From assembly GCF_000210295.1 (NCBI RefSeq), contig NC_026743.1:1736001-1800000 (forward strand): a stretch of 64,000 nt of DNA, given 5' to 3'. Positions 1,089 to 42,552 of this stretch are shown one piece after another; the stretch's first letter is position 1, and every line of letters begins with the position of its first letter. Both the position numbers and the translations under genes were made by a program. The notes beneath the pieces are model-generated. The model did no database searches. It was not told the DNA's origin and saw only the letters and a program-made list of their open reading frames with translations. This DNA comes from Trypanosoma brucei gambiense DAL972. Taxonomy: Eukaryota; Euglenozoa; Kinetoplastea; Trypanosomatida; Trypanosomatidae.

Positions 1089-2234
1089 TTAAAACAATAA
1101 AAATAACAACGCGAGGGTCCTCCTGAGAGAGTCAGCCCTGCCAACACCACATATCGCCATCTCCTCCAACAGCTTCTCCTCTTGCACCGTTTCTCTGTTC
1201 CCGAGCACGACGAATGACTTCCCACTATCCTCATCTACCACTACTGTGCTTTTATTTCCGTGCGTGCCCGTGTTCACAATAGCTTGCGCGTATTCCCAGT
1301 TCCAGTGTGCGCCGGTTTCGTGCGCCAGCTCTTCGATGTAAGCATACAAGTTCACAAATTTGCGAAGCTCTCGGTAGGCGTTTCTAAGAACGGGGACGTT
1401 GTTAACGGGGTCTTCCTCCCAAGTTACATCGTGTATTAGAACCTCTGCACGGGTTTTTCCTGTCCCCCCAACGAATCCTCTTCCACTTCGTTTAAGGGAA
1501 ATAATTCCATCTCCCCAGAGTATTCTTCTGGACGTGCTGTTTTCGGAGAGGTAGCCGCCCCCCGGACGGGTGTTTGTTAGGTGGCAGTTTGCGCTGTGGA
1601 CGTAGCGTTCCAAGGGGTTTCCACCGCCACCAGTGAGCCTAAGCAGTTCGTTCATACTCTCCCGTGTCATGTTCATTTCCTCCACCCTTTCCATGCGGTG
1701 CATATCCCCCAAAGAAATAAATTCATCCTTCTCCGAGTCACTTAAATAGCAATTCAACAACTGATTCCGCGTCGCGTGGCGCTCGCTATTTCCTACGCAA
1801 AAATCCCCTTTCCCACTGGAATACGCGCGCCGCCACACATTTATCATTTCATCCAACCTCCCCGCCGCTATCCCTGCTGCCCCTACCGCTGAGTATCCAA
1901 GATATCTCAACCTCTTCAATTCTCTCCTCTTCACCCTATTCACTTTACTCCCCACACGTTTCAAAAACTTCGCGATCCCCGTGCACGAGGTCCAATTGCC
2001 ATTTCCCCCTTCATTTCCCCTAACCCTCACAATCTTTAACCTCACCAACTCCACCATATCCTCAAACTCCCTCACCTTCTCGGTTGCATACTTGGTTTTC
2101 GCTTGGACGAAGGCATACACCGATTTCAGCCTCTTCGACGCATTACAGAGCGCCTCCGCAGCTCCACTCAAACTCAGTGCGCCACTGTCCGCAAAAGCAA
2201 AATGACAAAGAGAAAAATACAACGACTGGCGCAT
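1089..2234 (-). CDS. VSG-related (VR-like) surface glycoprotein
   Basis: This encodes a 381-residue predicted secretory protein. The start at 2234 gives a short hydrophobic signal peptide, followed by a Ser/Ala/Leu-rich helical stretch (AEALCNASKRLKSV) typical of the mature start of VSG-like N-terminal domains. The body is mostly charged helix with several N-x-S/T sequons (NAS, NWT, NMT, NST, NKS) and scattered cysteines. It ends in a hydrophobic run (TLALLFLLF) that resembles a GPI-addition signal without much hinge. VSGs are usually longer and have a Cys-rich C-terminal domain, which is not visible here. That favours the chromosome-internal VSG-related family over an expressed-site VSG. A truncated relative lies just downstream. 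The family assignment is inferred from architecture, and the exact function is unknown. Confidence 0.5.
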   Translation of the reverse strand: MRQSLYFSLCHFAFADSGALSLSGAAEALCNASKRLKSVYAFVQAKTKYATEKVREFEDMVELVRLKIVRVRGNEGGNGNWTSCTGIAKFLKRVGSKVNRVKRRELKRLRYLGYSAVGAAGIAAGRLDEMINVWRRAYSSGKGDFCVGNSERHATRNQLLNCYLSDSEKDEFISLGDMHRMERVEEMNMTRESMNELLRLTGGGGNPLERYVHSANCHLTNTRPGGGYLSENSTSRRILWGDGIISLKRSGRGFVGGTGKTRAEVLIHDVTWEEDPVNNVPVLRNAYRELRKFVNLYAYIEELAHETGAHWNWEYAQAIVNTGTHGNKSTVVVDEDSGKSFVVLGNRETVQEEKLLEEMAICGVGRADSLRRTLALLFLLF

Positions 2235-5653: not shown

Positions 5654-7012
5654 TTACGGTCTCGCTTCATCTGAGGATTGAGTTACGGGGACGGCAAAAG
5701 ATGCATCAGATAAGCATCGGGGCACCTCCTCCATCATAACCTCGTTGTCGCATATGACAACCGCGTTCTGGCGTTCCCTTCCCAAAAATAAAACTGCCGA
5801 CAGCCCCACCGCCAGTACCAAAAACGTGGAACCAACCAAAAGCAGCAATCCCGCACTGACGCTCGATCCTTTCCCCTTTGCATTCGAGGACTTGGGGGAA
5901 TCCTCAGTAGGGCATCCATCACAGAGTGCAACAAGCTTTAACGAAGACGAAGATTTCAAGAACATTCCGTCAGTCCCGTCCGCTGCATCGCTTACCTCCG
6001 TATCATTGCAGTCACCTGTGATGTTACAATCATCAGTTTCATTGCAGTCACCTGTGATGTTACAATCATCAGTTTCATTGCAGTCACCTGTGATGTTACA
6101 ATCATCAGTTTCATTGCAGTCACCTGTGATGTTGCAATCATCAGTTTCATTGCAGTCACCTGTGATGTTGCAATCATCGGTTTCATTGCAGTCACCTGTG
6201 ATGTTGCAATCATCGGTTTCATTGCAGTCACCTGTGATGTTACAATCATCAGTTTCATTGCAGTCACCTGTGATGTTGCAATCATCAGTTTCATTGCAGT
6301 CACCTGTGATGTCGCAATCATCAGTTTCATTGCAGTCACCTGTGATGTCGCAATCATCAGTTTCATTGCAGTCACCTGTGATGTTACAATCATCGGTTTC
6401 ATTGCAGTCACCTGTGATGTTGCAATCATCAGTTTCATTGCAGTCACCTGTGATGTTACAATCATCAGTTTCATTGCAGTCACCTGTGATGTTGCAATCA
6501 TCAGTTTCATTGCAGTCACCTGTGATGTTACAATCATCGGTTTCATTGCAGTCACCTGTGATGTTACAATCATCAGTTTCATTGCAGTCACCTGTGATGT
6601 TGCAATCATCGGTTTCATTGCAGTCACCTGTGATGTTGCAATCATCAGTTTCATTGCAGTCACCTGTGATGTTACAATCATCAGTTTCATTGCAGTCACC
6701 TGTGATGTTACAATCATCAGTTTCATTGCAGTCACCTGTGATGTTACAATCATCAGTTTCATTGCAGTCACCTGTGATGTCGCAATCATCAGTTTCATTG
6801 CAGTCACCTGTGATGTTGCAATCATCGGCGTAACCCGTAGCGTTCTTGTAGTCGAAGAAGAAATCATCATGTACGGCATCAGCAGGGGGTGTGGCTACCT
6901 CAGCATTTGATTCTTCAAAGATTGGACCTGCCTCGTTAGCCATGCCAGGCACACACGCGGTGCTGGCGAATAAGACGGTCATAAACAAAGGAATGTAGTA
7001 TTTGGCGGACAT
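5654..7012 (-). CDS. CRAM: CRAM, short copy (23 repeats)
   Basis: This is the cysteine-rich acidic transmembrane protein of the trypanosome flagellar pocket. The frame gives 452 residues: a signal peptide (residues 1 to about 25), an acidic linker to about residue 62, 23 copies of a 12-residue unit with core NITGDCNETD, a spacer, one membrane segment (about 381-411) and a cytoplasmic tail of about 42 residues starting GRERQNAV. Each unit has two cysteines and two N-glycosylation sequons. Published T. brucei CRAM has about 66 units and 945 residues (established knowledge), so this copy is much shorter while both ends are intact. A receptor-like or scavenging role in the pocket has been proposed for the family. 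The shortened array may be a real allele, a tandem paralogue or an assembly collapse. Confidence 0.9.
   Translation of the reverse strand: MSAKYYIPLFMTVLFASTACVPGMANEAGPIFEESNAEVATPPADAVHDDFFFDYKNATGYADDCNITGDCNETDDCDITGDCNETDDCNITGDCNETDDCNITGDCNETDDCNITGDCNETDDCNITGDCNETDDCNITGDCNETDDCNITGDCNETDDCNITGDCNETDDCNITGDCNETDDCNITGDCNETDDCNITGDCNETDDCNITGDCNETDDCDITGDCNETDDCDITGDCNETDDCNITGDCNETDDCNITGDCNETDDCNITGDCNETDDCNITGDCNETDDCNITGDCNETDDCNITGDCNETDDCNITGDCNETDDCNITGDCNDTEVSDAADGTDGMFLKSSSSLKLVALCDGCPTEDSPKSSNAKGKGSSVSAGLLLLVGSTFLVLAVGLSAVLFLGRERQNAVVICDNEVMMEEVPRCLSDASFAVPVTQSSDEARP
6001..6828 (-). repeat. 36-bp tandem array, 23 units (short CRAM copy)
   Basis: There are twenty-three 36-bp units in exact register with no spacers. 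Units differ at a few positions, giving Cys TGT/TGC, Asn AAC or Asp GAC in the first sequon, and Thr ACT/ACC in the second. In plus-strand order, units 9-16 have the same variant order as units 2-9 of the long copy, and the last six units match its last six. Confidence 0.95.
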
Positions 7013-7544
7013 TGCCCTGTTTAAGAATAGCGTTAACTTGTCGCGAAAGCTCCTTGGGATGAGGAGGTAGGGGAAAGGAGAGATTTAGAACATTGGAGAG
7101 GACGCAAAGTGAATTTGGGCTTCAAGAGGCGCAGGATGGAAAAAAGAGTCAGAACATCGAGCGACAGCATGGTGGTGAAATCTTTCAAACAAACTCACCC
7201 TTTTAAGGCACATACCTTATCCTTTTCTTCCCCCACCGTTGAGGCCACTGAAGCTTCTCCGCACTGCCACACTTGCAACAAAGGTGCCGTACACAAAACA
7301 AGTTGAATGGAGAATTGACCGCGGACCACAAAAAATGTCTGAGAATTCCAATCGATGTGGCTCACGTCGAACCCCAACACCGGAAGAAACGATCCCCAAA
7401 GAGAAGCCTAGCAGGCAAAGTCTTTTTATCAACCCCCATCCGGCCAGCTCTTCAATCAGTCTGAGAATATGAGGTATATTTATCTGCTGAGCAGGCGACA
7501 GGAGGATTGTGGAAGCACCACGCGGTACTGACGCTTGACGAGTG
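7013..7544. other. CRAM-DTD intergenic spacer, left copy
   Basis: This 532-bp spacer is a by-eye identical copy of 9921-10452. It contains the CRAM 5' untranslated region and splice region, and presumably the DTD 3' untranslated region. No gene is seen in it. Confidence 0.7.
7053..7082 (-). promoter_or_regulatory. Predicted trans-splice acceptor of the short CRAM copy
   Basis: On the minus strand a C/T-rich tract (7057-7082) is followed by the first AG at 7053-7054, about 41 nt upstream of the CRAM ATG. This is the usual polypyrimidine-AG arrangement for spliced-leader addition in trypanosomes. The site is predicted, not mapped. Confidence 0.5.
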
Positions 7545-7616
7545 TCACTTATTTCGGCTGTCCAGCACAAGCGTCACTGGGCCATCGTTGGTCATATTGA
7601 TATTCATGTAGGATGG
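7545..7616 (-). pseudogene. DTD: 3' end of a DTD gene cut by the assembly gap
   Basis: This encodes the last 23 or so residues of D-aminoacyl-tRNA deacylase, including the NDGPVT motif and the terminus VLDSRNK, identical to the end of the complete gene at 10453-10908. The frame runs straight into the N block, so it is incomplete because of the assembly rather than visibly mutated. The last two or three bases before the Ns (GGATGG against GGATTGG) differ from the intact copy and look like low-quality contig-end sequence. If the gap hides a whole DTD, the locus is a true tandem duplication. If not, the fragment is a misassembly product. Confidence 0.8.
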
Positions 7617-7716
7617 NNNNNNNNNNNNNNNNNNNNNNNNNNNNNNNNNNNNNNNNNNNNNNNNNNNNNNNNNNNNNNNNNNNNNNNNNNNNNNNNNNNN
7701 NNNNNNNNNNNNNNNN
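7617..7716. other. Assembly gap (100 N)
   Basis: Exactly 100 Ns, a conventional placeholder for a gap of unknown size. It separates the DTD 3' fragment from the interior of the long CRAM array. Confidence 0.99.
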
Positions 7717-9736
7717 TCAGTTTCATTGCAGTCACCTGTGATGTGGCATTCATCAGTTTCATTGCAGTCACCTGTGATGTCGCAATCATCAGTTTCATTG
7801 CAGTCACCTGTGATGTCGCAATCATCAGTTTCATTGCAGTCACCTGTGATGTTACAATCATCGGTTTCATTGCAGTCACCTGTGATGTTGCAATCATCAG
7901 TTTCATTGCAGTCACCTGTGATGTTACAATCATCAGTTTCATTGCAGTCACCTGTGATGTTGCAATCATCAGTTTCATTGCAGTCACCTGTGATGTTACA
8001 ATCATCGGTTTCATTGCAGTCACCTGTGATGTTACAATCATCAGTTTCATTGCAGTCACCTGTGATGTTACAATCATCAGTTTCATTGCAGTCACCTGTG
8101 ATGTCGCAATCATCAGTTTCATTGCAGTCACCTGTGATGTTACAATCATCGGTTTCATTGCAGTCACCTGTGATGTTGCAATCATCAGTTTCATTGCAGT
8201 CACCTGTGATGTTGCAATCATCAGTTTCATTGCAGTCACCTGTGATGTTACAATCATCGGTTTCATTGCAGTCACCTGTGATGTTACAATCATCAGTTTC
8301 ATTGCAGTCACCTGTGATGTTGCAATCATCAGTTTCATTGCAGTCACCTGTGATGTCGCAATCATCAGTTTCATTGCAGTCACCTGTGATGTCGCAATCA
8401 TCAGTTTCATTGCAGTCACCTGTGATGTTACAATCATCGGTTTCATGGCAGTCACCTGTGATGTTGCAATCATCAGTTTCATTGCAGTCACCTGTGATGT
8501 TACAATCATCAGTTTCATTGCAGTCACCTGTGATGTTGCAATCATCAGTTTCATTGCAGTCACCTGTGATGTTACAATCATCGGTTTCATTGCAGTCACC
8601 TGTGATGTTACAATCATCAGTTTCATTGCAGTCACCTGTGATGTTACAATCATCGGTTTCATTGCAGTCACCTGTGATGTTGCAATCATCAGTTTCATTG
8701 CAGTCACCTGTGATGTTGCAATCATCAGTTTCATTGCAGTCACCTGTGATGTTACAATCATCGGTTTCATTGCAGTCACCTGTGATGTTGCAATCATCAG
8801 TTTCATTGCAGTCACCTGTGATGTTACAATCATCAGTTTCATTGCAGTCACCTGTGATGTTGCAATCATCAGTTTCATTGCAGTCACCTGTGATGTCGCA
8901 ATCATCAGTTTCATTGCAGTCACCTGTGATGTTGCAATCATCAGTTTCATTGCAGTCACCTGTGATGTTACAATCATCAGTTTCATTGCAGTCACCTGTG
9001 ATGTTGCAATCATCAGTTTCATTGCAGTCACCTGTGATGTTACAATCATCAGTTTCATTGCAGTCACCTGTGATGTTGCAATCATCAGTTTCATTGCAGT
9101 CACCTGTGATGTTGCAATCATCAGTTTCATTGCAGTCACCTGTGATGTTGCAATCATCAGTTTCATTGCAGTCACCTGTGATGTTGCAATCATCAGTTTC
9201 ATTGCAGTCACCTGTGATGTTACAATCATCGGTTTCATTGCAGTCACCTGTGATGTTGCAATCATCAGTTTCATTGCAGTCACCTGTGATGTTACAATCA
9301 TCAGTTTCATTGCAGTCACCTGTGATGTTGCAATCATCAGTTTCATTGCAGTCACCTGTGATGTTGCAATCATCAGTTTCATTGCAGTCACCTGTGATGT
9401 TGCAATCATCAGTTTCATTGCAGTCACCTGTGATGTTACAATCATCAGTTTCATTGCAGTCACCTGTGATGTTACAATCATCAGTTTCATTGCAGTCACC
9501 TGTGATGTTGCAATCATCAGTTTCATTGCAGTCACCTGTGATGTTGCAATCATCAGTTTCATTGCAGTCACCTGTGATGTTACAATCATCAGTTTCATTG
9601 CAGTCACCTGTGATGTTACAATCATCAGTTTCATTGCAGTCACCTGTGATGTTACAATCATCAGTTTCATTGCAGTCACCTGTGATGTCGCAATCATCAG
9701 TTTCATTGCAGTCACCTGTGATGTTGCAATCATCGG
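7717..9736 (-). repeat. 36-bp tandem array, 56 visible units (long CRAM copy)
   Basis: The units keep strict 36-bp periodicity from 7721 to 9736. They carry the same variant classes as the short array. The array is interrupted by the gap on its left side, so the copy number is a minimum. Confidence 0.95.
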
Positions 9737-9920
9737 CGTAACCCGTAGCGTTCTTGTAGTCGAAGAAGAAATCATCATGTACGGCATCAGCAGGGGGTGT
9801 GGCTACCTCAGCATTTGATTCTTCAAAGATTGGACCTGCCTCGTTAGCCATGCCAGGCACACACGCGGTGCTGGCGAATAAGACGGTCATAAACAAAGGA
9901 ATGTAGTATTTGGCGGACAT
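7717..9920 (-). CDS. CRAM: CRAM, long copy (at least 56 repeats; 3' end in the gap)
   Basis: This is a second CRAM copy with the same signal peptide and acidic linker as the short copy, starting at 9920, followed by 56 visible 12-residue units before the gap. The membrane segment and tail are missing because the gap falls inside the array. The unit beside the gap resembles unit 8 of the short copy with two probable base errors, and the next eight units match units 9-16 of the short copy by variant type. If the hidden part resembles the short copy, about seven further units would complete the array at about 63, close to the 66 published for T. brucei CRAM. One unit (about 8441-8460) has His in place of the second sequon Asn. 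The long open frames on the other strand are a by-product of a repeat length divisible by three. Confidence 0.9.
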
Positions 9921-17425: not shown

Positions 17426-18787
17426 TCACCTGTGAAGAAAGTCGATAATAAGCCGCAGAGGTCCCTCAACATACGCCTGCAGGCAGCACTTCGTTTCCAT
17501 CATTTGCATCCACTCTGCCTCACGCAACATTTCATCGAGTGTGACACGAATAATGTCTTCAGCACTACCACCACCAACACAATACTGCCCAAGCGGGAAA
17601 GAACTCCCGGTGCCTGGAAGGCCCTCCAACGCCGCCTTCGCCCGCTGTATCACCTGCTTTAGCACTCGCTTATCATGTTCAGTTAATGGCGCTCGCCCTT
17701 TGTTGTCATGCGAGAGACAAGAAGGACGGACACCAACCCAGCGAATGGGAAGAAGCGCAGCCGCAACGGATGTCGACAATTCGGGGACACGTTCCGCTGG
17801 CTGACATCGCCGGCCGCGGTTGATATCCTCCCCGAAAAGTCCCATGAAAGTAAGGGCAATGCGCAATCCATGAGGGTCCCCATCAACAAGAACGAGAATC
17901 GGCAGCTCAGGTAACTCACGATGAAGGCTGCGAAGAAAAAGACGGGAGGCTCGGCACGGATAGCCCTTACTGCACAAGTAAGCACATCGGTTTGAAATAG
18001 ATTCACTCCCCAGTGCGCTCTTAACATCCGCAAGGGTGTGCAGCGTGCTTTCCTTTTCCACTACAACAAGTGCGGCTGTGACACCATTGCCACGACCCGC
18101 TCCTGCAGCCCTGAAGTTGTGGGCATGTAAACCAAGTGTTGTGCTGACAAGTACACCGGAAATGTGATGTTTGGCATTGACCTCCACAGAAGGCACTTTG
18201 GCACTGGGAACGCACGTCGGCAACTCCTGTGCACCACCCGACACTAATGAGGTCGAGGTTGCGGAAACTGTAGGAATGTCAAATGCAAGGTTTCCAAGAA
18301 GAATGCTCTTCCCACTCGCTCCAATACGAAGGTCCTCACGGGTGTAGCGACGGCGCTCACCGGCAGATGAGCCTGGTGGAAGCGGGCAAACACAACTCAT
18401 CCATCGACAGAGTCGCTCAATGCTGCAGTGGGTGTCGCGCTGTCCGTTTGGAAACAGTTCTGTATTGCGGTAGTACACATCCCGTTCAGTGCACAGTAAA
18501 CCCTCCTGAACCATATTAACGACGCAACAAAGCACATGCAAAGCCTGGGCATCATACCGCAATAGTTCTGAGCACCTCCCTCTTAATGTTTGCATCTCAT
18601 CACCCACCGCAGTACCATGGGGGAGTAAAGGCACCTGCTGCCTCTGCACAGTGAGACTGAGGAAGTGAAAACTGTGCTTTTGTGAAGTCCTCGCGCGCGC
18701 ACCAGTGGGAGGTGGAGAAAATAGAGAAGTGAGATACGCCCGAGTGATGGCTTCCGCCGCGTTCATCACCTCCTTGTCACTGAGCAT
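17426..18787 (-). CDS. SPO11: SPO11, meiotic topoisomerase VI A-like protein
   Basis: This encodes a 453-residue SPO11/TopVIA homologue, the transesterase that makes the DNA double-strand breaks that start meiotic recombination. The 5Y-CAP region carries ERDVYYRNTELF at about 101-112, and Tyr106 is the expected nucleophile. The TOPRIM domain shows VVEKESTL with Glu244, then GYPCRASRLFLRSL (275-288) and LVDGDPHGLRI with Asp302 and Asp304 for metal binding. The downstream LTEHDKRVLKQ segment is also family-typical. An extra, poorly conserved stretch of about 65 residues (171-237) sits between the two domains. The length is near that of other SPO11 proteins. It is expected to be nuclear and to act in meiosis, which occurs in the tsetse stage of T. 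brucei. Confidence 0.9.
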   Translation of the reverse strand: MLSDKEVMNAAEAITRAYLTSLFSPPPTGARARTSQKHSFHFLSLTVQRQQVPLLPHGTAVGDEMQTLRGRCSELLRYDAQALHVLCCVVNMVQEGLLCTERDVYYRNTELFPNGQRDTHCSIERLCRWMSCVCPLPPGSSAGERRRYTREDLRIGASGKSILLGNLAFDIPTVSATSTSLVSGGAQELPTCVPSAKVPSVEVNAKHHISGVLVSTTLGLHAHNFRAAGAGRGNGVTAALVVVEKESTLHTLADVKSALGSESISNRCAYLCSKGYPCRASRLFLRSLHRELPELPILVLVDGDPHGLRIALTFMGLFGEDINRGRRCQPAERVPELSTSVAAALLPIRWVGVRPSCLSHDNKGRAPLTEHDKRVLKQVIQRAKAALEGLPGTGSSFPLGQYCVGGGSAEDIIRVTLDEMLREAEWMQMMETKCCLQAYVEGPLRLIIDFLHR

Positions 18788-19862: not shown

Positions 19863-22800
19863 CTACATCTGGTGTATCATCGCAAGGGCAACGCGAAATT
19901 CTTCGTATGTCATGCGGCCGTTACCACGTCGCCTCATTCCTTCGAACATCTTTGACATCTTGCCCTTGGACGGAGGCTGTCCAAAGAAATCCAACATCTT
20001 GATGTCTCTTTCGAAGGCTTCCCCATCGATGGTACTGCGCAAAATGTCGCATATTGAGCTGCGGTTGCCTGCAGACGATGCGGCAACGCGGGACAAGAGG
20101 GAACTGACGTAGCCCTGCTTCCGCAGCTCCTCTTTACACTCGAGTTTGCCGCCATAATGAACCCACAGACGTGGCACATCTTCCGCGGACGCGTGCAGAA
20201 GACTCTCCCACAACCATCCCTTTAGTGCTGCCTCATCCGAATTTCTGGCGGGATTACCAAAGTAATGCTGTGGGTCGCACACCCAATCATCTTCCCTCGA
20301 TTTCGGTCTTTCGCACTCCACATCGGGCCCATTTCCACTGACCTTTTCATCAAGTCCAATGTGTGCCGGTGCCAGGGGGACAAAAGTCCCTTCCCTCTCA
20401 GTAAGGACGTCAATAAACTGCTTGGTGTCGAGCCCATGCACGAAGCTAAACATGTGACCAGTGTAGTATCCATCGTTTAACTCGTGTCGCTTACTACCTG
20501 TGTAACGAACTAGCGGGTTCTCCGCCCACTCTGACAAGTCGGTGGGGTCATGATCAACGTGACATAACGCACGAACAAGTGGGTCAGGCGCAAAATCTCC
20601 CGTGCCGCACCACAGATCGCGCTCCTTGTACGCTTGCAACGGCCCTTCACTCGCTAACACGACGTTATCGATACGGTTGGGTCTTACTGGAAGGTCATAA
20701 TCCTCCCAATCAGAGAAGAGTTCACCGCGGAAAGAAGTGGGAACCGCTCTCTCGGGGTCAGGGTCACCAATGACATCGTGCAGAAACTTTTTCCAACTGC
20801 AGTCCCGCTGGTCCCAGCTCACTATATAACAGTGGACGTCATTGACGCCAGGCTCGCTCTCGATCATGCGTTCGCATTCAAAAGGAATAGCGGCGTTGAC
20901 AACGTAAACATCCTCTGCATGGAACTTCGTTATTTCCATATCGTAGGCAAGATGGACATGCTGCTGTTGCGGGAGGGACCACTTCACATAGAGTTGCGAG
21001 GGTGTCAACGAGAAGCGGATGAGGGCCTCACGGGCGCCAACAACACGTTGCGACTTCGCGGCCTCTTTCCATTCCTCACCGAACGCGTCGTAGAAATCGT
21101 CCTCTCCACCAGGTGTCACATCCAAATAGCCATTGGTACACGTTGTTGCGTAGAGCATGGGGGAGGAAAACTGTTTTTCGATAAGTGTCGGGGTCGTTCT
21201 CTTGCGAACCTCCCGCTTTATCCGTATACCGTTTTCATTGAGAACCCTCTCCAATAGACCCATCACCTTCACGTTGCCTGCTGCATGAGGTTTCAAAATG
21301 ATCATAGCGGTATTCCTGTAGAGCAATGAGGGGCCCGTCTCCGCCGGCTGTGGGGCCCTTGAAGAAACTGTCATGGGCCCTTCGGTTTCCTCCCCTAGTG
21401 TGGAATGTCGCTCCTGCGTTGGCGTGCTAGCGGTGCCATCACGTCCTCCGTCATGAGCACACTCATTAGCGGGGAGTCGCGCCGCTCCAGTTGGATCAAC
21501 CTCCTCCTCCTCCTCGCGCTTCAACTCCTCCGACAACGCGGTCATCATAAACATGACACGGGAGGTGTCACATTGGCCAAGATGTTCGAATATGCTCATC
21601 TTGATTCCTCCGGACAACACCTCGGGGTTTTCGACCCATGTTTGTAGCACACACTCGAGCACTCCTTTCCGCAAAAGCAAAGAACCAAGATAATCTTCTT
21701 GAACGGAGTACTTCACACACTTCGTACGCTCTCTAATCGCCTGGATGGCACCTTGACTAACGTGCAGACCGTTACGCAGCTCATCTGGTGGTTCAGTTAT
21801 CCCGTAATCTCTCCATCTGCGATTCAGTTGTCCCCGAATGCTCGTTGGCACAGCATCCGCTGGGGACTCGCTCCCAACAACCTCCTCTAAGAATGTGGGC
21901 CAGTCCATCTCACGGGGCTCCCACAACACGACATACCAGTGATGCATCGCCTCAGATGATTCGAGGAAGCATTTCAACCCCGGCATGAGGCCATTTACGA
22001 CAAACACGCCATCAAACGGCAACTCAAAAATTTCAAGGCCTGGGCGAACCATCAACCGCCTTGATGCCGCCGTACACTTATAGAAGAGTTGAACAGGTGT
22101 AATGTTACTTAGCGCAACCAGCGCCTCGTACGCGTTTACCAGTACACCGCCCTCAAGCAGGTTGCACCAACTAACCCCAAAACTCAGCTGCACTCTGTCC
22201 CTTTCCTTCCGTGACAATTTAATAGTTGAAACATCGCAGTCCGCGTACTTCAGCTCAACAGCGTAAAGGTGCTGAACAAAATCGCGCTCACGTAAGGTGG
22301 CAGCGCTCACATCACCTTCCTCGTCAATCCGCACCCTCGCGCGCGCAAAGACCGTCTCAACCGTCAAAGCAAAGCCACGGCACAGGGAGCCGGTCTTCAT
22401 CAACACAAAAGCAGAGTTACGCGGCGCCTCGGAAAGATGTGCAAAATTCTCCGACTGGAGAAGTTGTAATGCCTCCTTGCTGTTCATCCTGCGCGCCATA
22501 TCGAATAGGAATCGGCCGTCGCCACAGGGGGTACGTGGGTTTGTTAGACACCTTCTCATTACGTATGGTGTGATAGACAGTTCATCCATTCCAAAACGAC
22601 ACACCGCGTCACGTTTGATTCCCAACGAAAGCCACATTTGTTTCAAACGCATCGCCTCCAGAGGACTCGCGGATGCCATCACCGCACCTTCAAACGAGTC
22701 CGGTGGCCGCCGTAGCCCGGCAGCCTTCCACTCCTCACATAGGACCTGCTGCAAGCTTCCCGGTCTGGCTTCCTTAAGGTAAGGATCCCCAATGATGTAA

Positions 22801-25800
22801 TCCATAAAATGAGCGTAATCCATGTCGCTGCTATTCCACGATACTGTCAAAAAATATTTCATGTTGGCCTCACCGCAAAACGTTTCCACAGTGTGAAGGG
22901 CAAACCCGTTAACAACATAAACGTCATGGTCGGGCATCTTACCGACGAAACAGTTTGGGGCTATGCGCGCCAGAGGTTCACACATCAGCCACCTATCCCT
23001 TAGGTATGCCGCCGAGTAGTCAAACTCCACAGCTGCGTCCACAGCGTTGAACACCTTTCGGGGGTCCCACATCGTTCCAAAAGTGCTGAGGAAAAGGGAC
23101 AGGGCCTCCGAGTCGAGTGCATACTGGTAGGGAGATTGTCTGACTGCGTATTTGAATACGCCGTCCTGGACGGCGTGAGCCACGCTGCTTAGATCCTGAT
23201 TTCCACCAACCATGCTTCCACTTCCGTCGATCCGTATGTTATAGTGGCGCAGAAAATCGGCGATATAGTTAATCACACGATCACTTGCTTCCGATGAAGT
23301 GCAGGCGGGATTGACCACAATGAAGGCGTAGTTCCGCTTCAAGTTTCCCTCTTCATCCTTCAGGGTTGACGAGGTGTCCCCTTCGGAGCAGAGAGGCTTC
23401 CCTTCCGCCCGCAGCACGCCTTTACATCCGTCAACACACTCTTTTCCAGTGTCCCTTTTCACCTTGTACTCGTGGCTGGACGAGAGCTCGGGGGGAACCG
23501 GCACAAATCTTGGTGCCTGGGGTGAAACGATGTGCATTCCACCAGACGACTGCAGCCCGATTAGTTGCGCTATCAGAAGTGGGTTCTCCGTGCATAACTT
23601 GTCGAACGCATCGCCCATGGACTCCAATGGCTCCTCTCTGTGTCGCACAAGGGGGTTCTCAAGTATCTTACGAAGATACCCGGGGTCTACGCCACCCATA
23701 ACCAGTAACCGTCCGAAAACATCCTGTTCCAAGCTTACCCCAAGCCAAGAGACACGATCTGCAAGCCCCTCAACAGGCGTGGCAGAGGCGCAAAAACCGT
23801 TGTCAATACCGTCTGGCTGCCGTTGCAGACCGAGCTCCACCCAAGATTTGTACAGTGTGTGGCGAAGAGATGATTCCTCAGCCTTTTCTGGCACATCTGT
23901 ACCGATCACGTACCGGTGGAAATCCCCCCACGTCATTATCTCGCTATCCCATGACACAACGTACCAAGAAACGTGGGAGCCAGCGTACATTCGCGAACGC
24001 AAATAAGGATAGAACCCATTGACAACATAAAGCCCCTCCCTCTCTAAGTAAGCAATGTAAAGGGAAGGAGCCAAGCACACCTTACGTGGTGCCTCATCCC
24101 AATCCTTTAGCAACTGCAAAACGCCAATCCTATCCACCGCCTGCGCTGCATTGATAACCAAATGAAGGTTCATCGCGGTATTCCACGTGATACCGAAGGT
24201 AGCATCAAACTCTGCCATCTGTTTTGTGCTGATGGGAATCTCGTGCACTGCGCGTGTCATGGCGTTGCGATAGAGGGTGCACTGCTTGCGGTCGGCAAGT
24301 TCCTTATCAAAGACTTCCGCCATGGGTACGCGACCCGAAGAAATTACCTCAATACGGTGTTGCAACAGTGCTTTTGGGATCCACGCTTCCACATGCTTTG
24401 TGCATGCGTGCGGTTTGACCCACAGAAATGCGTAATTCATTTTCAAACCGCGCAAAAAACGTGAAGTAATAACCTTCATGCGACGAACCACTTCAGAACT
24501 CTGTACGTGATACGAAAGATCAGACATTGTGTATTGTGGCAGAAAACATCCGGTTGCGCTCCAGTTCTTCCTTGATGTCCATGACTTCGGAGGTGGAGAC
24601 GACGTATCATCAATATTCTTGATCGCCTTTACCCCTTCCTCCTCCTCTTCATCATCCTCATCTTGCGGGTTGCGTTCACCGTCTATGTACGTCGTAAGCA
24701 TTGAAAGCGGCACACCTTCCAGTAGGAGGCGCTGTACAAAGTGGTCCTCCGGTAACTGAACGTCCAGCCAAATTTCTCGATCAACGGTACCCTCCAAAGG
24801 ACCTTGCGAAACTGAAACGGCAGCAGACCAACGCGAGGCTGGCTTGAATGGCAACCCGAAACCCTTCCACTCATCCGCAAACGTGCGCTGCAAGCTTCCC
24901 TCCGTTGCTTTGTAGGGAATACAGTCGTCACTGAAACCAACCAAGCGCTCAGAGAGGTCGTGCCAAGTCCAAACATCCTCCTTCCACTCCACATCAAAGA
25001 CGTGAGTCACGCTCCCAGGTTTTCCATGGGTCTCCCGAACAAAGGGAACAAAACCATTTAGCACGTATATTTCGTGGTCGGTTAGGTGAACCACCCAGCA
25101 GTTTGAGTGAAGCTGCACCGGTTGTACTGACTCCCACAGATGAAGGAGCTCCGTTGGTGTTAAACCCAGTACCTCGCAAGCAGAGGTTGCGCCCATCAAC
25201 TGTCCACTGATAACACAACCCTCCCACGTATATCCGAATTGTGCATGAAACTGCTTTTTGATCGATGAACTGACGTTTCCGCACATATCATCTTTTTTGA
25301 AGTCAGCCCAGTGCGCCAGCTTAAGGAATTCATTGCTGCCGAGGTACCGTTTCTCGACGCTTCTGCTCAATAATGTTAGCTCCCGCACCACCGCTACATC
25401 AGCGGCAGCAAAACAATTCCTCACAGTTTCTATAGTCCACTCGTTGACGGCAAAGGGCCTCAGTACTACCACTGCTCGGTTGACCGATCGTTCGTTGTAC
25501 TCTGCAAGAACATGCTGCTCTGCCTCGCACATAAGGTCCACGACTTCAGAAGTTTGTAAGTTCTCTAGAAGGTCAAAAACATGACCGGATCGCACCCCAT
25601 CGGCCATTACAACCGCCGGATTCGACCGCCAGCCGTACAGCAGCGCACCTGTCAACCCACGCTCTTGCAGCCGTAGTGTGAGTGGATCGTGTGTGAGTGG
25701 TGATCCGATCCACAGGTACCGCTCCAGCACTGCCTCCAGCGGACCCGCCGAGGCGTGGACCCCGTTGTTTGTTGTTGTGGGAATGCCCTGCAGCCCCAGT

Positions 25801-27431
25801 TCGCGCCAGCGGTTTTGTATCAACCCGCGCAAACTGGTTGACGGTGCTTTGGCGGGGTTCGTACACCCAACCAGCTCCTCACGGAAGCTCCTCCAAGTCA
25901 GATGTTCTTCGAGCCATGAAACCACGTAGCACGTTACCTTCGCATCCTTCCGCTCATAGCTGTCCCGAATGTATGGAAAGAAGCCGTTAATCACAAAAGC
26001 ATTCTCCTCAGAGAGGCGCGCAACGTACGCCCCAGGGGCAACCTTCAACACATCAGTGCATGAGCACCACATCTCGTACAACTCGGTGGAGGATATATCC
26101 CCAAGGATGCGCAAGGCAGAATCAGCATTCCACACCCGTCCACTCCGAACCAACTCCTTCCAGGACATGCCAAACCGCTCCTGGAATTCTTGCATTGTTT
26201 TGGGGCTCAACTCGATCAAATCGGGTGTTAAAACAGCGGCGTACTTCGCAATGGTTCCGTAATGCTGCTCCATCACGTGCCTCGACGCTATTTCGCTTCC
26301 AGAGATATGGTGTTGAGACAAGATTTGTATGCCCTTAACCTGTGTGAGTCGTTCCTCCACCAGCGCTCGGGTTTCGGGGGTGTTGGCGTGGGGTTTCACA
26401 AACAGCAGGGCCCTGTTGCGTACCTCGTCTGGATCTTCATCGTTTAGTACAATAGTCCAATCAGCTATGCGTGAAGGTGAAATCGGAGTATCAGCTTGAT
26501 TCTTCCGTTCACTTAGGCACTTTTGTCTCTCATCAGCATAAACAGCGGCCACTAGACAGGTAGCCTCACTACTCTGCATGTCTTCTGTAATCTCAAATAC
26601 AGAGCGACACGCGCCCTTGTAGCTGATGGGGGGATTTTTCATCAGTCCCTCAACAAAACCTCGCCCAACACCCTCTTGCAGCAGCTGCCGCCCAAAGTCA
26701 TCTTCGTTGATACCACGATGCATCCACACAGAGCGGAGCGCAAGTGCCTCAATGGGCCCATTGGCATATATCAGGCCGTTGTCCGCAATGCTTGGTTGTT
26801 CACTGAGCCCGTATTCCTCCCAGTTCTCGTACATCAATCGGCGGAGGGACGTTGAGTCGGCTTCGCTGGGGTCCGCCGCGCCGATCACCTCTAAACAAAA
26901 CCGTTTCCACGAGTACCGCGCCTCGGGCCATGAAAGGACGAAGAAACAAATCTTACTAGTGGGAGCGGTGAAGGAATTAAATAGCAGCGGGTAAAAGCCA
27001 TTAATTACATATAGCCCTTCCTCTTTGAAATATGATACATAGAACCCGTACTCAAGCCGAACCCGCAATTTGGATGACCACCAACGGGCGTTTAATCCTT
27101 CCATAGTTGTATTGAGGGCTACCATAGCATCCTCGGGGGTCAGCACACGCCGTTCCTCCATCGCGACGGTCCAAGATTCACCAAACGCAGAGAAAAAAAG
27201 CATGGCAGACTCCTCTGAAGCGAATGTCCCCATTTCTAGAGAGGAGGACATGACACGCGCCGCAGTTGCGCTGTAATGTCGCTCCACATACGCGCCCCGG
27301 CTAACCTCCTGGCCTGTCAGTAGCTGCATGTCGTCCACGCGAATCCCATGGGAGTCAAAATGATCTCGTGCCTTCGCAATAAACGTATCCCTGCATGCAC
27401 TGGGTTTAACTAGTACGAATGATGTATTCAT
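19863..27431 (-). CDS. Giant protein with seven NDK-like repeats and an EF-hand-like tail
   Basis: This encodes a 2522-residue protein made of seven units of about 300-370 residues starting near residues 1, 339, 651, 999, 1367, 1672 and 2040. Each begins with a strand like ALLFVKPHA, resembling the NDK start VAIKPDGV. Each continues through a family-specific middle with a VINGF motif, and ends with a block such as VGCTNPAKAPSTSLRG followed by NGVHASAGPLEA. That last block mirrors the NDK pair G-T-NP-A-PGTIRGD and N-IHGSDS. The active-site His position is His only in unit 2 (His559) and unit 6 (His1890); the others have Ile, Ser, Cys, Met and Leu. Units are therefore mostly pseudo-enzymes. The last 45 residues resemble a degenerate EF-hand pair (GNGRMTYEEFRVAL). 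NDK-domain proteins are common in axonemes, so a flagellar structural role is possible but is inference. Confidence 0.7.
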   Translation of the reverse strand: MNTSFVLVKPSACRDTFIAKARDHFDSHGIRVDDMQLLTGQEVSRGAYVERHYSATAARVMSSSLEMGTFASEESAMLFFSAFGESWTVAMEERRVLTPEDAMVALNTTMEGLNARWWSSKLRVRLEYGFYVSYFKEEGLYVINGFYPLLFNSFTAPTSKICFFVLSWPEARYSWKRFCLEVIGAADPSEADSTSLRRLMYENWEEYGLSEQPSIADNGLIYANGPIEALALRSVWMHRGINEDDFGRQLLQEGVGRGFVEGLMKNPPISYKGACRSVFEITEDMQSSEATCLVAAVYADERQKCLSERKNQADTPISPSRIADWTIVLNDEDPDEVRNRALLFVKPHANTPETRALVEERLTQVKGIQILSQHHISGSEIASRHVMEQHYGTIAKYAAVLTPDLIELSPKTMQEFQERFGMSWKELVRSGRVWNADSALRILGDISSTELYEMWCSCTDVLKVAPGAYVARLSEENAFVINGFFPYIRDSYERKDAKVTCYVVSWLEEHLTWRSFREELVGCTNPAKAPSTSLRGLIQNRWRELGLQGIPTTTNNGVHASAGPLEAVLERYLWIGSPLTHDPLTLRLQERGLTGALLYGWRSNPAVVMADGVRSGHVFDLLENLQTSEVVDLMCEAEQHVLAEYNERSVNRAVVVLRPFAVNEWTIETVRNCFAAADVAVVRELTLLSRSVEKRYLGSNEFLKLAHWADFKKDDMCGNVSSSIKKQFHAQFGYTWEGCVISGQLMGATSACEVLGLTPTELLHLWESVQPVQLHSNCWVVHLTDHEIYVLNGFVPFVRETHGKPGSVTHVFDVEWKEDVWTWHDLSERLVGFSDDCIPYKATEGSLQRTFADEWKGFGLPFKPASRWSAAVSVSQGPLEGTVDREIWLDVQLPEDHFVQRLLLEGVPLSMLTTYIDGERNPQDEDDEEEEEGVKAIKNIDDTSSPPPKSWTSRKNWSATGCFLPQYTMSDLSYHVQSSEVVRRMKVITSRFLRGLKMNYAFLWVKPHACTKHVEAWIPKALLQHRIEVISSGRVPMAEVFDKELADRKQCTLYRNAMTRAVHEIPISTKQMAEFDATFGITWNTAMNLHLVINAAQAVDRIGVLQLLKDWDEAPRKVCLAPSLYIAYLEREGLYVVNGFYPYLRSRMYAGSHVSWYVVSWDSEIMTWGDFHRYVIGTDVPEKAEESSLRHTLYKSWVELGLQRQPDGIDNGFCASATPVEGLADRVSWLGVSLEQDVFGRLLVMGGVDPGYLRKILENPLVRHREEPLESMGDAFDKLCTENPLLIAQLIGLQSSGGMHIVSPQAPRFVPVPPELSSSHEYKVKRDTGKECVDGCKGVLRAEGKPLCSEGDTSSTLKDEEGNLKRNYAFIVVNPACTSSEASDRVINYIADFLRHYNIRIDGSGSMVGGNQDLSSVAHAVQDGVFKYAVRQSPYQYALDSEALSLFLSTFGTMWDPRKVFNAVDAAVEFDYSAAYLRDRWLMCEPLARIAPNCFVGKMPDHDVYVVNGFALHTVETFCGEANMKYFLTVSWNSSDMDYAHFMDYIIGDPYLKEARPGSLQQVLCEEWKAAGLRRPPDSFEGAVMASASPLEAMRLKQMWLSLGIKRDAVCRFGMDELSITPYVMRRCLTNPRTPCGDGRFLFDMARRMNSKEALQLLQSENFAHLSEAPRNSAFVLMKTGSLCRGFALTVETVFARARVRIDEEGDVSAATLRERDFVQHLYAVELKYADCDVSTIKLSRKERDRVQLSFGVSWCNLLEGGVLVNAYEALVALSNITPVQLFYKCTAASRRLMVRPGLEIFELPFDGVFVVNGLMPGLKCFLESSEAMHHWYVVLWEPREMDWPTFLEEVVGSESPADAVPTSIRGQLNRRWRDYGITEPPDELRNGLHVSQGAIQAIRERTKCVKYSVQEDYLGSLLLRKGVLECVLQTWVENPEVLSGGIKMSIFEHLGQCDTSRVMFMMTALSEELKREEEEEVDPTGAARLPANECAHDGGRDGTASTPTQERHSTLGEETEGPMTVSSRAPQPAETGPSLLYRNTAMIILKPHAAGNVKVMGLLERVLNENGIRIKREVRKRTTPTLIEKQFSSPMLYATTCTNGYLDVTPGGEDDFYDAFGEEWKEAAKSQRVVGAREALIRFSLTPSQLYVKWSLPQQQHVHLAYDMEITKFHAEDVYVVNAAIPFECERMIESEPGVNDVHCYIVSWDQRDCSWKKFLHDVIGDPDPERAVPTSFRGELFSDWEDYDLPVRPNRIDNVVLASEGPLQAYKERDLWCGTGDFAPDPLVRALCHVDHDPTDLSEWAENPLVRYTGSKRHELNDGYYTGHMFSFVHGLDTKQFIDVLTEREGTFVPLAPAHIGLDEKVSGNGPDVECERPKSREDDWVCDPQHYFGNPARNSDEAALKGWLWESLLHASAEDVPRLWVHYGGKLECKEELRKQGYVSSLLSRVAASSAGNRSSICDILRSTIDGEAFERDIKMLDFFGQPPSKGKMSKMFEGMRRRGNGRMTYEEFRVALAMIHQM

Positions 27432-39084: not shown

Positions 39085-42000
39085 TCATCGTCTTCTATCC
39101 GGCGACTCCTGAGGAGAAAAAAGGAATCTCGTCATCATCTCCCGATTACGTCGTAGCGCCATGGGCCCCGACGGCACGTCATCAAATCCCTTCGACGGGC
39201 TGCCTCCCTCATGAGCATCGAGGTGTTTGATGAGTGTTCGCCGCCCTGACAACTTCCGCTTTACCTTCTCAAATTTCACAAGACCGTAAGGACTGCGACC
39301 CTTATCCATCAGGTTACCAATTTCAATAAATTTAGGAACATCGACAGTCCAAAACATACCAAAGACAGTGTGCTCCGCCTCCCACAGCAATACAGACTTG
39401 GTATCGGGGTTGTACGCCTTTATCAGTGCTGCACTGCGGCCAAAACCCACCACGTCATGCGCTATGGCAGTGTCGTAGTTCAGGAGGAGAACTGTGTTAT
39501 TATTCTCCCGACGTGTGGCATCTCTAAGAATCGAATCGATATTCCCTTCCGTCACATCCTCCATGACCTCCACATGCACAAGCCACTCTTCATCATTGTG
39601 TTCATCGATTTGACTGTCACTTGACCCCCTTGTAGAATTGCGAGATTCCAGAAACATGCGGCAAATCTGGGCGAGAAATACTGTATCGATTTGCTTGTTA
39701 ATCACTGAAAGAGATACATCCACGTCACGCCACGCAAATGCCTGAGTCCCCCGGCGACGTTGACGGTTCATTGTCTGAAGGTACGCCTCGTAAAATATCT
39801 CCTCTGGGGAGTAGAAAAATCCAAGCTGGGTGAAGGCGCACGAAAGTGCCTGGAAATGCGGCGATGGGCTAACATGGAAAATGTTCCGTAGAGGCAGCAT
39901 ACGCAACGGTGTTTCTCGAGAATACTCAAGTGGAAACGATGGTGCCGGAAGAGTCGTGCAGTGTGACACTTTAAGGAAGCCACAACGGTGGTGAACGGTG
40001 TCCGCATCATGCATGGCCCTGAAGAGAGTGTGGAGGCACACGGACCATGTGCGGAAGTATCGGTTGGGATTCGTATCCATCACCGTTACGCCGCCGGTTG
40101 CCTTATTGTAACCAACAACTAGGCCTGTGGAACCAAATGGACGGGAGTCACCGAACACCTCAATTTCATTTGTGTTGAACAACATGACGAGGGCCTTGCC
40201 ACGGTCCGCCAAGCATTCCTCCATGATTTGTTCAAACTCCTCGACGGTTACACGTGCTTTGTTGCCGTTTCGCCTGTCAGTATGATAGGTCTTTACGCTT
40301 ACATTAAGACCGACATGCTCCACGTACGTCGTGAGGCAAACAGCCATTGATTCAAGCGTGAAGTAGCGCAGCATCAACGACGATATTTCGAAGGGTAGGG
40401 CAACAATAACGTCTTCAAATGTCGTAGGACAGCCCAACTCCATTAAAGTTAGCGCAATCATCGTTGGGCTCAATGGCAATGATGGAAAACACAATGTTCT
40501 CATCACCTCCCTTCTCGTCACACCGAGTGCATCTTGGTCCCTTAGTAGAGCGAGGTATCTTTGCACAGTTGGATCCACGCGCCTCAAGGCCCCAACCCGC
40601 GGAACCTGCGATTCATGTCCCAAAGGCAGCGAGTCACACCATGTCTCATCATGACTTAATCCCACATGTGTGCTGGCTGCGGTGCGCTTGGAGAATATAA
40701 GGTATCCGTTTGAGGTCATAGCCCGATGCAGGCGTTCAAGTGAACAAGTCCAGAGCTTCATGAACTTCTTCGGGTGCGCATCAATAAGCGACACCACCTG
40801 TGACTCCTCATCATAACCGGAGAGCACGCACCACTGGGGAGTATTGCTGACGTACAGGACATTGTGCGCAACGTTAGCATTATACATAATCACCATGACG
40901 TGCTCCGGGGCGTCAGGATCCTTGTTTGCATTCTTTACGTCGGTGAGAATTGACTCCAGCTCGAACACAGAGATGGTTGGCACCGCGTCTTCTCGAGAGG
41001 TGTTTGTGAGAATAGGGTAAATGGAGACATCGTAATTACGCTCCGTAAGGCGGATGTACTCTCGCGCGTATTTGAATACCTCTCCCAACGGCAGCGTGCT
41101 GTCGATGAGCACCTCTGCTGGAAACTTCATGGTGCGGACAATATCCGAAACTGGTAGCCCATTACCGTGGCCGTGCGCACTTGCTCTGTCACCTCCGAGA
41201 AGGTGCATCGCCCACGCAACTGCGATGATGTGAGGGCTGGTGTGGCCTGAGATGGCAGAGGCATGGGTTCCCATAGATGTCGTGCCAAGTACATTTCCTC
41301 CCGCCAGTTCAGGTGAGAACATGGATTGAACTTCGTCGTGGGACATCACCGGCACGCTATCCTTGCGAAAGATACGCATGAAACCACGCGCTCGTTCATT
41401 CTCCAACGGTACTGTCATCGCCTTGAAAAGGGCTGCGGCAGGAACTTCAAACAACCTTACGTGCAACTGATCATCAACGATACCTTCTGCGAGGGTAACC
41501 ATCAGCTCCACTACACACCGCACCTCCACAATAACAGCGTACACTCCATTGTTATTTTTAGAATATTGCCTCTCCTGATCCCTTAATCCAACACGGATAG
41601 AGTCTGCGAGGGCGGAGACGTCGTCATCTCCATCCACAAAGTTGTCAACGAATGTTTCCTGCTGGAGAACGTATGGATCATAATTTACAATGCGTACTGC
41701 TTGAATCTGCTCTTCACTGTCGTTGGCTATGGCTTTTGTGAACTCGTGCAACTGCATGCACGTCTGCCGATCGCCCACCTCGTTGCGACCAAGTTCCACC
41801 TGCCCAACGACGGGCGAGATGTCAAAATGGACAACAGAAAGGCCATACTCGTTCTTGAAGCGATTGTCAACATCAATAAACTCACGGAGAATGTCGCTCA
41901 TGACCTGTAGTGTCTGGACACCGCTGTGGAGGTAGTGGAGGGGTAAGTGGACAGCAAAAAATATATCTTCCATGGTAACGCACTTTTTGCGATCCCTGCA

Positions 42001-42552
42001 GCCGCGCGCACCTCCGAGAAGGTAGGAAAGAGCAACTGCAGCAGCACCAAAGTGGCCGCATTCCATAATAGCCTTATGCTCGTAATCCCGCTGCATCTCG
42101 TAACTCTTGAAGAATGCCATACGGGCTTTGCGAATTTCTACCACCTGTTGGCGGCTTCTGTGTTGACCTACAAGGGATCCAGTCCTCGATTGCTCCGCAT
42201 TGTTAATGTTACTCGTGTTGCCTGATTGGTTCGTTCCCCACGACCGCCCGTTGTTTTCGTTGGGCGTTTGGTTCTGTCGCCGTGGGGGCTGGTGCTCGGT
42301 ACACGACGACTCAGAGCCCCCAGCTGTCGTGCTGAATGAAACCTGCGAGGACCGACACGCTCCGCGCATTGAACCCTCCAATACCTCTTCATTTCCACTG
42401 CGCGCGTCTTCTGCACCGCCGTAGTAAACCCGGTCCCTTTCCATTGCACGGCGGCCTGAATTTGACACCTTCTCAAGTGCTGCCAGAGCGGCTTCCCACT
42501 TCCTGAGGTGCTCCTCAGTGGAGGCACGGGCATTAATTTGGCCGTTCCCCAT
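39085..42552 (-). CDS. Multi-domain phytochelatin-synthase-like papain-fold protein
   Basis: This encodes 1155 residues. After a disordered N-terminus (1 to about 145, with an MGNG start but a poor myristoylation context) I see four related domains at about 155-380, 430-650, 690-905 and 890-1080. Each starts with a helix like GHFGAAAVALSYLLGG, the place of the PCS motif with the nucleophilic Cys. Domains 2 and 3 end with GYDEESQVVSLIDAHPKKF and GYNKATGGVTVMDTNPNRYF, followed by W-x-x-x-L-x-x-(L/F)-x-x-AM. This closely follows the PCS end block GGY-x-LILDVARFKYPPHWV-L-EAM. Domain 1 keeps a Cys (about 165). Domain 2 has lost it, and the catalytic His looks replaced in domains 2 and 3 while the Asp remains. 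The array is therefore probably largely non-catalytic. The assignment is by motif reading only. Confidence 0.5.
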   Translation of the reverse strand: MGNGQINARASTEEHLRKWEAALAALEKVSNSGRRAMERDRVYYGGAEDARSGNEEVLEGSMRGACRSSQVSFSTTAGGSESSCTEHQPPRRQNQTPNENNGRSWGTNQSGNTSNINNAEQSRTGSLVGQHRSRQQVVEIRKARMAFFKSYEMQRDYEHKAIMECGHFGAAAVALSYLLGGARGCRDRKKCVTMEDIFFAVHLPLHYLHSGVQTLQVMSDILREFIDVDNRFKNEYGLSVVHFDISPVVGQVELGRNEVGDRQTCMQLHEFTKAIANDSEEQIQAVRIVNYDPYVLQQETFVDNFVDGDDDVSALADSIRVGLRDQERQYSKNNNGVYAVIVEVRCVVELMVTLAEGIVDDQLHVRLFEVPAAALFKAMTVPLENERARGFMRIFRKDSVPVMSHDEVQSMFSPELAGGNVLGTTSMGTHASAISGHTSPHIIAVAWAMHLLGGDRASAHGHGNGLPVSDIVRTMKFPAEVLIDSTLPLGEVFKYAREYIRLTERNYDVSIYPILTNTSREDAVPTISVFELESILTDVKNANKDPDAPEHVMVIMYNANVAHNVLYVSNTPQWCVLSGYDEESQVVSLIDAHPKKFMKLWTCSLERLHRAMTSNGYLIFSKRTAASTHVGLSHDETWCDSLPLGHESQVPRVGALRRVDPTVQRYLALLRDQDALGVTRREVMRTLCFPSLPLSPTMIALTLMELGCPTTFEDVIVALPFEISSLMLRYFTLESMAVCLTTYVEHVGLNVSVKTYHTDRRNGNKARVTVEEFEQIMEECLADRGKALVMLFNTNEIEVFGDSRPFGSTGLVVGYNKATGGVTVMDTNPNRYFRTWSVCLHTLFRAMHDADTVHHRCGFLKVSHCTTLPAPSFPLEYSRETPLRMLPLRNIFHVSPSPHFQALSCAFTQLGFFYSPEEIFYEAYLQTMNRQRRRGTQAFAWRDVDVSLSVINKQIDTVFLAQICRMFLESRNSTRGSSDSQIDEHNDEEWLVHVEVMEDVTEGNIDSILRDATRRENNNTVLLLNYDTAIAHDVVGFGRSAALIKAYNPDTKSVLLWEAEHTVFGMFWTVDVPKFIEIGNLMDKGRSPYGLVKFEKVKRKLSGRRTLIKHLDAHEGGSPSKGFDDVPSGPMALRRNREMMTRFLFSPQESPDRRR

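What the first reader, a model, noticed from the sequence alone, without database searches (positions are those of the whole stretch)
19863..27431. A 2522-residue chain of seven divergent NDK-like units, mostly without the catalytic His
Seven repeats each keep the NDK start (V-K-P) and end blocks (VGCTNP...SLRG, NGVHAS), but the active-site His survives only in units 2 and 6. An insertion with VINGF between the two halves appears in all units. Nothing similar is known to me: NME7 and NME8 have two or three NDK domains. The array could be a structural ruler or a nucleotide-sensing scaffold.
Basis: partly seen in the sequence, partly recalled or inferred. Interest (0 to 1): 0.75.

Follow-up and report, generated by a model that had tools for sequence, protein, structure and literature searches.

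The report
Trypanosome flagellar protein, seven NDK-fold units
A trypanosome gene, named after its flagellum in a related parasite, encodes a chain of seven copies of a nucleotide-handling enzyme fold, of which only one copy still has the full active site, so a row of enzymes appears to have been turned largely into a scaffold.

The parts
19863..27431 (-). gene for the seven-unit NDK-like protein (2522 aa), ortholog of T. cruzi 'Flagellar Member 1'
   Evidence: frame far longer than in shuffles
26520..27428 (-). unit 1 (residues 2-304); catalytic His replaced by Ile; NDK fold kept in model
   Evidence: unit profile; residues; model; coordinates
25503..26417 (-). unit 2 (residues 339-643); the only unit with all nine active-site residues
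25755..25757 (-). codon of the catalytic-type His of unit 2 (H559)
   Evidence: alignment; coordinate by arithmetic from residue number
25998..26234 (-). approximate insertion of unit 2 (about residues 400-478) inside the NDK fold, before the NGF motif
   Evidence: 137 NDK residues spread over 246 model residues; boundaries inferred from the unit consensus
24681..25481 (-). unit 3 (residues 651-917); His and most site residues lost
23592..24437 (-). unit 4 (residues 999-1280); His replaced by Cys here; His present in 6 of 13 trypanosomatid-type proteins
22452..23333 (-). unit 5 (residues 1367-1660); lowest-scoring unit, site lost
21507..22418 (-). unit 6 (residues 1672-1975); His kept, Thr94 and Phe60 equivalents changed
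21762..21764 (-). codon of the His of unit 6 (H1890)
   Evidence: alignment; coordinate by arithmetic
20394..21314 (-). unit 7 (residues 2040-2346); His replaced by Leu
19866..20393 (-). C-terminal tail (residues 2347-2522), apparent degenerate counterpart of the EF-hand-like tail of bodonid orthologs
   Evidence: EF-hand matches in P0011 just under the curated cut-off; precomputed EF-hand labels on P0010-P0012; tails printed; no EF-hand hit in the window protein

Best explanation
This is the African-trypanosome ortholog of Flagellar Member 1, a kinetoplastid protein made of seven copies of an insertion-bearing NDK unit. SHOWN by computation: seven units; an NDK fold in the models of units 1 and 2 and like secondary structure in unit 3; nine of nine active-site residues conserved in unit 2 of all 13 trypanosomatid-type proteins examined; loss of part of the site in every other unit of those proteins, with the fold kept at least in units 1 and 3. 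SUPPORTED by one test: the order of units predates the trypanosomatid-bodonid split. INFERRED: the protein sits in the flagellum. INFERRED: unit 2 still transfers phosphate between nucleotides through a phospho-His, balancing ATP and GTP locally. INFERRED: the other units are binding or spacing modules, unit 6 possibly a nucleotide sensor. INFERRED: the tail was a calcium switch in the ancestor and lost calcium binding in trypanosomatids.
For: Seven units. Fold. Active sites: unit 2 nine of nine in 13 of 13, no other unit nine of nine in any of the 13; unit 6 His 12 of 13; units 1, 3 and 7 His 0; bodonid His 21 of 21, all nine residues in 17 of 21. Wider set, His 211 of 211 scored units. In unit 2 the site columns are kept 117/117 against 430/546 for other family-invariant columns; the chance that all nine fall among the 26 fully kept of 51 columns is 0.001, relatedness ignored. 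Units 3 and 5 lose the site faster than other invariant columns (0.26 against 0.53 and 0.43). Unit order: 8 of 5040 orders fit as well. Name of the T. cruzi ortholog. Local NTP supply in flagella is discussed in PMC5473427 (passages). NME7 is a precedent for one active and one inactive NDK domain in one chain (PMC13256974, passages).
Against: No activity or location was measured here. The founding FLAM study could not be read. R88 of canonical NDK is not kept at its aligned column in the family (4 of 203), though the residue before it is Arg in 201 of 204, so even unit 2 may differ in mechanism. Units 1, 4 and 7 do not lose the site clearly faster than other invariant columns (0.45, 0.62, 0.60 against 0.51, 0.55, 0.50). 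The unit tree does not join trypanosomatid units with the bodonid unit of the same number, and in the order test only 4 of 7 units find their own number as best partner. The 211 of 211 comes from the best-scoring hits to a profile of His-bearing units, so it is biased towards conserved copies.
Confidence: 0.55

Rival explanations
1. Pure structural scaffold: all seven units, unit 2 included, are non-enzymatic binding modules on the axoneme or paraflagellar rod, and unit 2 conserves its site only to bind a nucleotide or partner.
For: Six of seven units have lost part of the site; group II NME proteins of cilia have been considered mostly inactive (PMC13256974, passages); NDK-family chains of trypanosomatid CFAP67 type have solved structures.
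Against: His and the eight other scored residues kept in unit 2 in 13 of 13 proteins, His in 211 of 211 scored units of the wider set (biased sample).
Confidence: 0.25
2. Structural ruler: a stiff rod of seven units that sets an axial spacing in the flagellum.
For: Seven units in every kinetoplastid copy of P0001-P0015 (P0008 lacks part of unit 1); a helix runs from unit 2 almost directly into unit 3 in the model.
Against: Gaps between unit matches of 34, 7, 81, 86, 11 and 64 residues here and of other lengths in relatives; the unit 1-2 stretch has pLDDT under 50; the two Phytomonas copies lack unit 7; no PDB chain matches although flagellar NDK-family chains are in the library.
Confidence: 0.08
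3. Nucleotide or calcium sensor: units that bind but do not turn over nucleotides report ATP/GTP, with the tail adding calcium.
For: EF-hand matches in the Bodo tail, 1.3e-5 but just under cut-off; unit 6 keeps site residues better than its other invariant columns, 0.79 against 0.41.
Against: No EF-hand hit in the window protein up to E 1; sensing has no direct evidence.
Confidence: 0.1

Closest known systems
NME8 (TXNDC3), three tandem NDK domains
   Same: Tandem NDK domains in a cilium-associated protein without detectable NDPK activity (PMC2777172 and PMC13256974, passages)
   Different: Three units after a thioredoxin domain; here seven units with insertion and helical tail, no thioredoxin hit
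NME7 / CFAP67 (FAP67; trypanosomatid NDPK2 and NDPK3)
   Same: NDK domain in ciliary proteins; in human NME7 domain A competent and domain B inactive
   Different: NDPK2 and NDPK3 of T. cruzi carry an N-terminal DM10 domain (PMC8833001); the paralog at L003 matches PDB chain 9e2g_0R over 349 of 349 residues while this protein has no PDB chain
Flagellar Member 1 (FLAM1) of T. cruzi
   Same: Ortholog over the full length, 53% identity, seven units
   Different: Only the name was available; no described domain architecture was found in the library searched
Protist NDK-like proteins with one or more such units, some fused to enolase, glutamine synthetase, a histidine phosphatase, peroxiredoxin, CAP-Gly or Alba domains
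   Same: Match the same 308-position unit with the same insertion
   Different: In the three arrays measured the units are 61-68% alike and the His is kept in every unit scored; the seven units here are 25% alike

Membership tests
NDK fold (PF00334 superfamily) | Sequence match of the whole protein over Pfam's gathering score | tested here: met
   29.3 bits against 27, E 9e-7, no stretch passing alone; Bodo ortholog 3.5e-36
NDK fold (PF00334 superfamily) | Each single unit over the gathering score | tested here: not met
   Units 1 and 2 at 17.0 and 14.8 bits, 0 of 5 for units 3-7. Profile comparison with three NDKs of this genome, probability for units 1-7: 50.4, 82.5, 40.8, 25.4, 0.2, 71.4, 22.8%; reversed control 0.1-0.2%
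NDK fold (PF00334 superfamily) | NDK three-dimensional fold | tested here: met
Catalytic NDPK (EC 2.7.4.6) | Catalytic His and eight other site residues | tested here: met
   Unit 2 only, 13 of 13 proteins; a tenth residue, R88, is not kept at its column, 4 of 203 in the wider set
Catalytic NDPK (EC 2.7.4.6) | Measured phosphotransfer and oligomeric state | not testable with these tools
   Needs protein
NME7/CFAP67 | DM10 domain at the N terminus | tested here: not met
   No such Pfam hit up to E 1; the first NDK unit starts at residue 2
NME8 | Thioredoxin domain before three NDK domains | tested here: not met
   No thioredoxin hit up to E 1, seven units
FLAM1 orthologs | Full-length similarity and same unit order | tested here: met
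   P0007, 100% coverage, 53% identity; same-position units group together for the five trypanosomatid-type proteins in the tree
FLAM1 orthologs | Location in the flagellum | not testable with these tools
   Name only

The most novel reading that the evidence does not exclude
The insertion-bearing NDK unit is a protist domain without its own Pfam or NCBIfam model among those that matched here; it repeatedly builds arrays and picks up metabolic enzymes (enolase, glutamine synthetase, peroxiredoxin) as a local phosphate-transfer module, perhaps of flagella. In trypanosomatids the seven-unit chain has become a single-chain counterpart of the NDPK oligomer: one unit stays catalytic and the others became regulatory or docking subunits, much as dynein's ring of six AAA modules keeps few active ones (analogy recalled).
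Probability: 0.2. Interest if true: 0.8.

Novelty: new variant of a known kind. Interest (0 to 1): 0.55.

Why it matters
Among multi-NDK ciliary proteins that I read of, the largest number was three (NME8); this has seven. It gives a series of enzyme-to-pseudoenzyme change inside one polypeptide: the bodonid-type copies keep the His in all seven units, the trypanosomatid-type copies keep one complete site. That makes the question of what NDK domains do in flagella testable unit by unit. It also adds a candidate to the NDPK list of trypanosomes: the T. brucei table of a 2022 review has four entries and not this one (PMC8833001, section 2 parts 1 and 2 of 3).

Tried and rejected
Rejected: chance frame. 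Rejected: recent tandem duplication; Tandem Repeats Finder sees nothing and the units are 25% alike on average. Not found: further copies in the genome; unit 2 as query hits only the seven units of this gene. Not found: a PDB chain for this protein (E up to 1 gives one tyrosine--tRNA ligase chain at 0.99), although an NDK paralog of the same genome matches 9e2g/9e5c over 349 of 349 residues (control; that these are doublet-microtubule entries is recalled). A PF00334 search of the whole genome found four other genes and missed this one.

Led nowhere: NCBIfam gives NDK models far under cut-off, and one weak lipoprotein match in P0016. Ten literature searches gave no description of this architecture in what was listed; several lists were capped (20 of 56, 30 of 38, 20 of 108 papers), most papers were seen only as listings, and subscription papers are mostly missing. 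Passages were searched without finding this protein in PMC2813431, PMC7617938, PMC11971395, PMC8141408, PMC6070722, PMC9323424. The founding FLAM paper (Subota 2014) is not held; what I say of it is recalled apart from the citation seen. The L. donovani paper PMC6022219 links FLAM1 with paraflagellar-rod function by prediction only and reports its transcript; that its FLAM1 is this ortholog was not checked (passages). VIA-align leaves the insertion and tail untested.

Rows dropped or special: P0002 has 100% identity to the window protein and was left out of counts. P0008 lacks the start of unit 1; P0017 and P0143 lack unit 7 and the later half of unit 3; P0146 is too broken to count. For P0013-P0015 the two matched pieces of unit 7 were counted as one unit. 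'211 of 211' is over unit matches in P0018-P0142 (120 listed hits and five) with a residue at that column; 45 more had a gap there. The 1644 matches beyond the listed 120 were not seen and may include ordinary NDKs. Unit counts count matched stretches over 100 positions, so a broken unit may count twice. Four trypanosomatid-type rows (P0009, P0013-P0015) and two bodonid-type rows (P0010, P0012) come from unnamed sources and are placed by similarity.

Full report
Setting. The window lies at C10:1736001-1800000 of a 22.1 Mb genome in 11 contigs. A variant surface glycoprotein match sits at its left end, and the nearest named homologs of the protein are from Trypanosoma congolense (64%), T. vivax (55%) and T. 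cruzi and T. theileri (53%). I take it to be an African trypanosome of the T. brucei group; no tool named the species.

The gene. Shuffles of the window gave at most 290 codons. One Pfam family passes its cut-off for the whole protein, NDK at 9e-7. Databases already label some orthologs nucleoside diphosphate kinase.

The units. Aligning units of the Bodo saltans ortholog, two bodonid-like proteins and a EukProt protein gave a profile of 308 positions. It finds seven units in the window protein, and seven in each of P0002-P0015; the two Phytomonas copies have six. Each unit has an N-terminal NDK half, about 100 extra residues, the N-G-F motif, the C-terminal NDK half, and a helical tail; the consensus of the bodonid and EukProt units reads K-P-H, G-A-T-N-P, S-L-R, N-G-I-H-A-S and F-D-L-L-E-D in these places.

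The active sites. I mapped K12, Y52, F60, T94, R105, N115, H118, S120 and E129 of human NME2 (numbering and role recalled) onto the unit profile. In P0018-P0142 these are nearly invariant and the His is kept in 211 of 211 scored units; R88 is not kept at its column (4 of 203), but the residue before it is Arg in 201 of 204. These are the best hits to a profile of His-bearing units, so the sample leans towards conserved copies. Bodonid-type proteins keep the His in 21 of 21 units and all nine residues in 17. In 13 trypanosomatid-type proteins (the window's included) the His counts for units 1 to 7 are 0, 13, 0, 6, 3, 12 of 13 and 0 of 11; for unit 3 two copies have no residue there. Unit 2 keeps all nine in 13 of 13, no other unit in any. 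Among 51 family-invariant columns, unit 2 keeps 26 in all 13 proteins and the nine site columns are among them (hypergeometric 0.001, not corrected for relatedness). Units 3 and 5 lose the site more than the rest, unit 6 keeps it better than the rest (0.79 against 0.41), units 1, 4 and 7 show little difference.

History. In a tree of 68 units those of five trypanosomatid-type proteins form seven supported clades by position (unit 7 with four rows). They do not join bodonid units of the same number on that tree. A comparison of unit order between seven trypanosomatid-type and three bodonid-type proteins still favours shared order, 8 of 5040 orders being as good; 4 of 7 units find their own number as best partner. 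Three arrays from unnamed sources look recently expanded (61-68% alike inside an array), while Bodo units are 42% and the window's units 25% alike.

The wider family. A profile of paired units matches 1644 proteins at E up to 0.001 among the 7995 candidates scored; 120 were listed, the rest not seen. All 134 proteins fetched as P0018-P0151 (P0143 is a Phytomonas copy) hold at least one stretch of over 100 unit positions: 55 one, 52 two, 21 three and 6 five or six. Named hosts include the euglenid Eutreptiella, Prorocentrum, Durusdinium and Polarella (dinoflagellates, recalled), Hondaea, a dictyochophyte and a chlorarachniophyte. Pfam confirms joined domains in single proteins: enolase (complete in one, partial in another), glutamine synthetase, a histidine phosphatase, peroxiredoxin, CAP-Gly with PH, Alba and EF-hands (8 proteins). 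Chimeric gene models cannot be excluded.

What it does. The T. cruzi ortholog's source name is Flagellar Member 1. No PDB chain matches the protein, though the NDPK3-like paralog of this genome matches 9e2g/9e5c over 349 of 349 residues (that these are doublet-microtubule entries is recalled). So it is more likely outside the ordered doublet repeat, for instance in the rod, the matrix or a loosely held complex. I judge most likely a flagellar scaffold with one working NDK unit, 0.55. The gaps of 34 to 86 residues between unit matches speak against a rigid ruler, though they include some of a unit's own tail. The Bodo tail has EF-hand matches, the best 1.3e-5 and 0.1 bit under its cut-off; the window protein's tail has none.

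Print. A 2022 review of trypanosomatid NDPKs lists four T. brucei genes, on chromosomes 11, 9, 4 and 8, two of 349 and 634 residues (section 2, parts 1 and 2 of 3 read). They fit the four genome matches to PF00334 on C11, C9, C4 and C8, two of which have frames of 349 and 634 residues. The present gene is not in that table. I found no description of the seven-unit architecture in ten searches of the held library, which lacks most subscription papers and the founding FLAM paper.

Noticed in passing
window 53206-58611 (-): 1801-aa protein with many Ig-like domains of CFAP65, another ciliary protein on the same strand.
   Followed up: no
window 17426-18787 (-): SPO11/topoisomerase VI A-like protein, the next long frame downstream of the NDK-array gene.
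   Followed up: no
window 5654-9920 (-): Two frames rich in CRAM 22-residue repeats (21 and 47 matched stretches), cysteine-rich acidic integral membrane protein.
   Followed up: no
window 1089-2234 (-): A-type variant surface glycoprotein match in a 381-aa frame.
   Followed up: no
window 39085-42552 (-): 1155-aa protein with a partial phytochelatin-synthase match in its later half.
   Followed up: no
P0139, P0140, P0145 (fetched proteins): NDK units joined to enolase (P0139 complete, P0140 partial) and to glutamine synthetase (P0145): an unexplained habit of this unit to join metabolic enzymes.
   Followed up: partly
P0016 (fetched protein): EukProt array whose first ~165 residues are outside the units and may be a docking segment (impression only); its units are 58-73% alike.
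   Followed up: no
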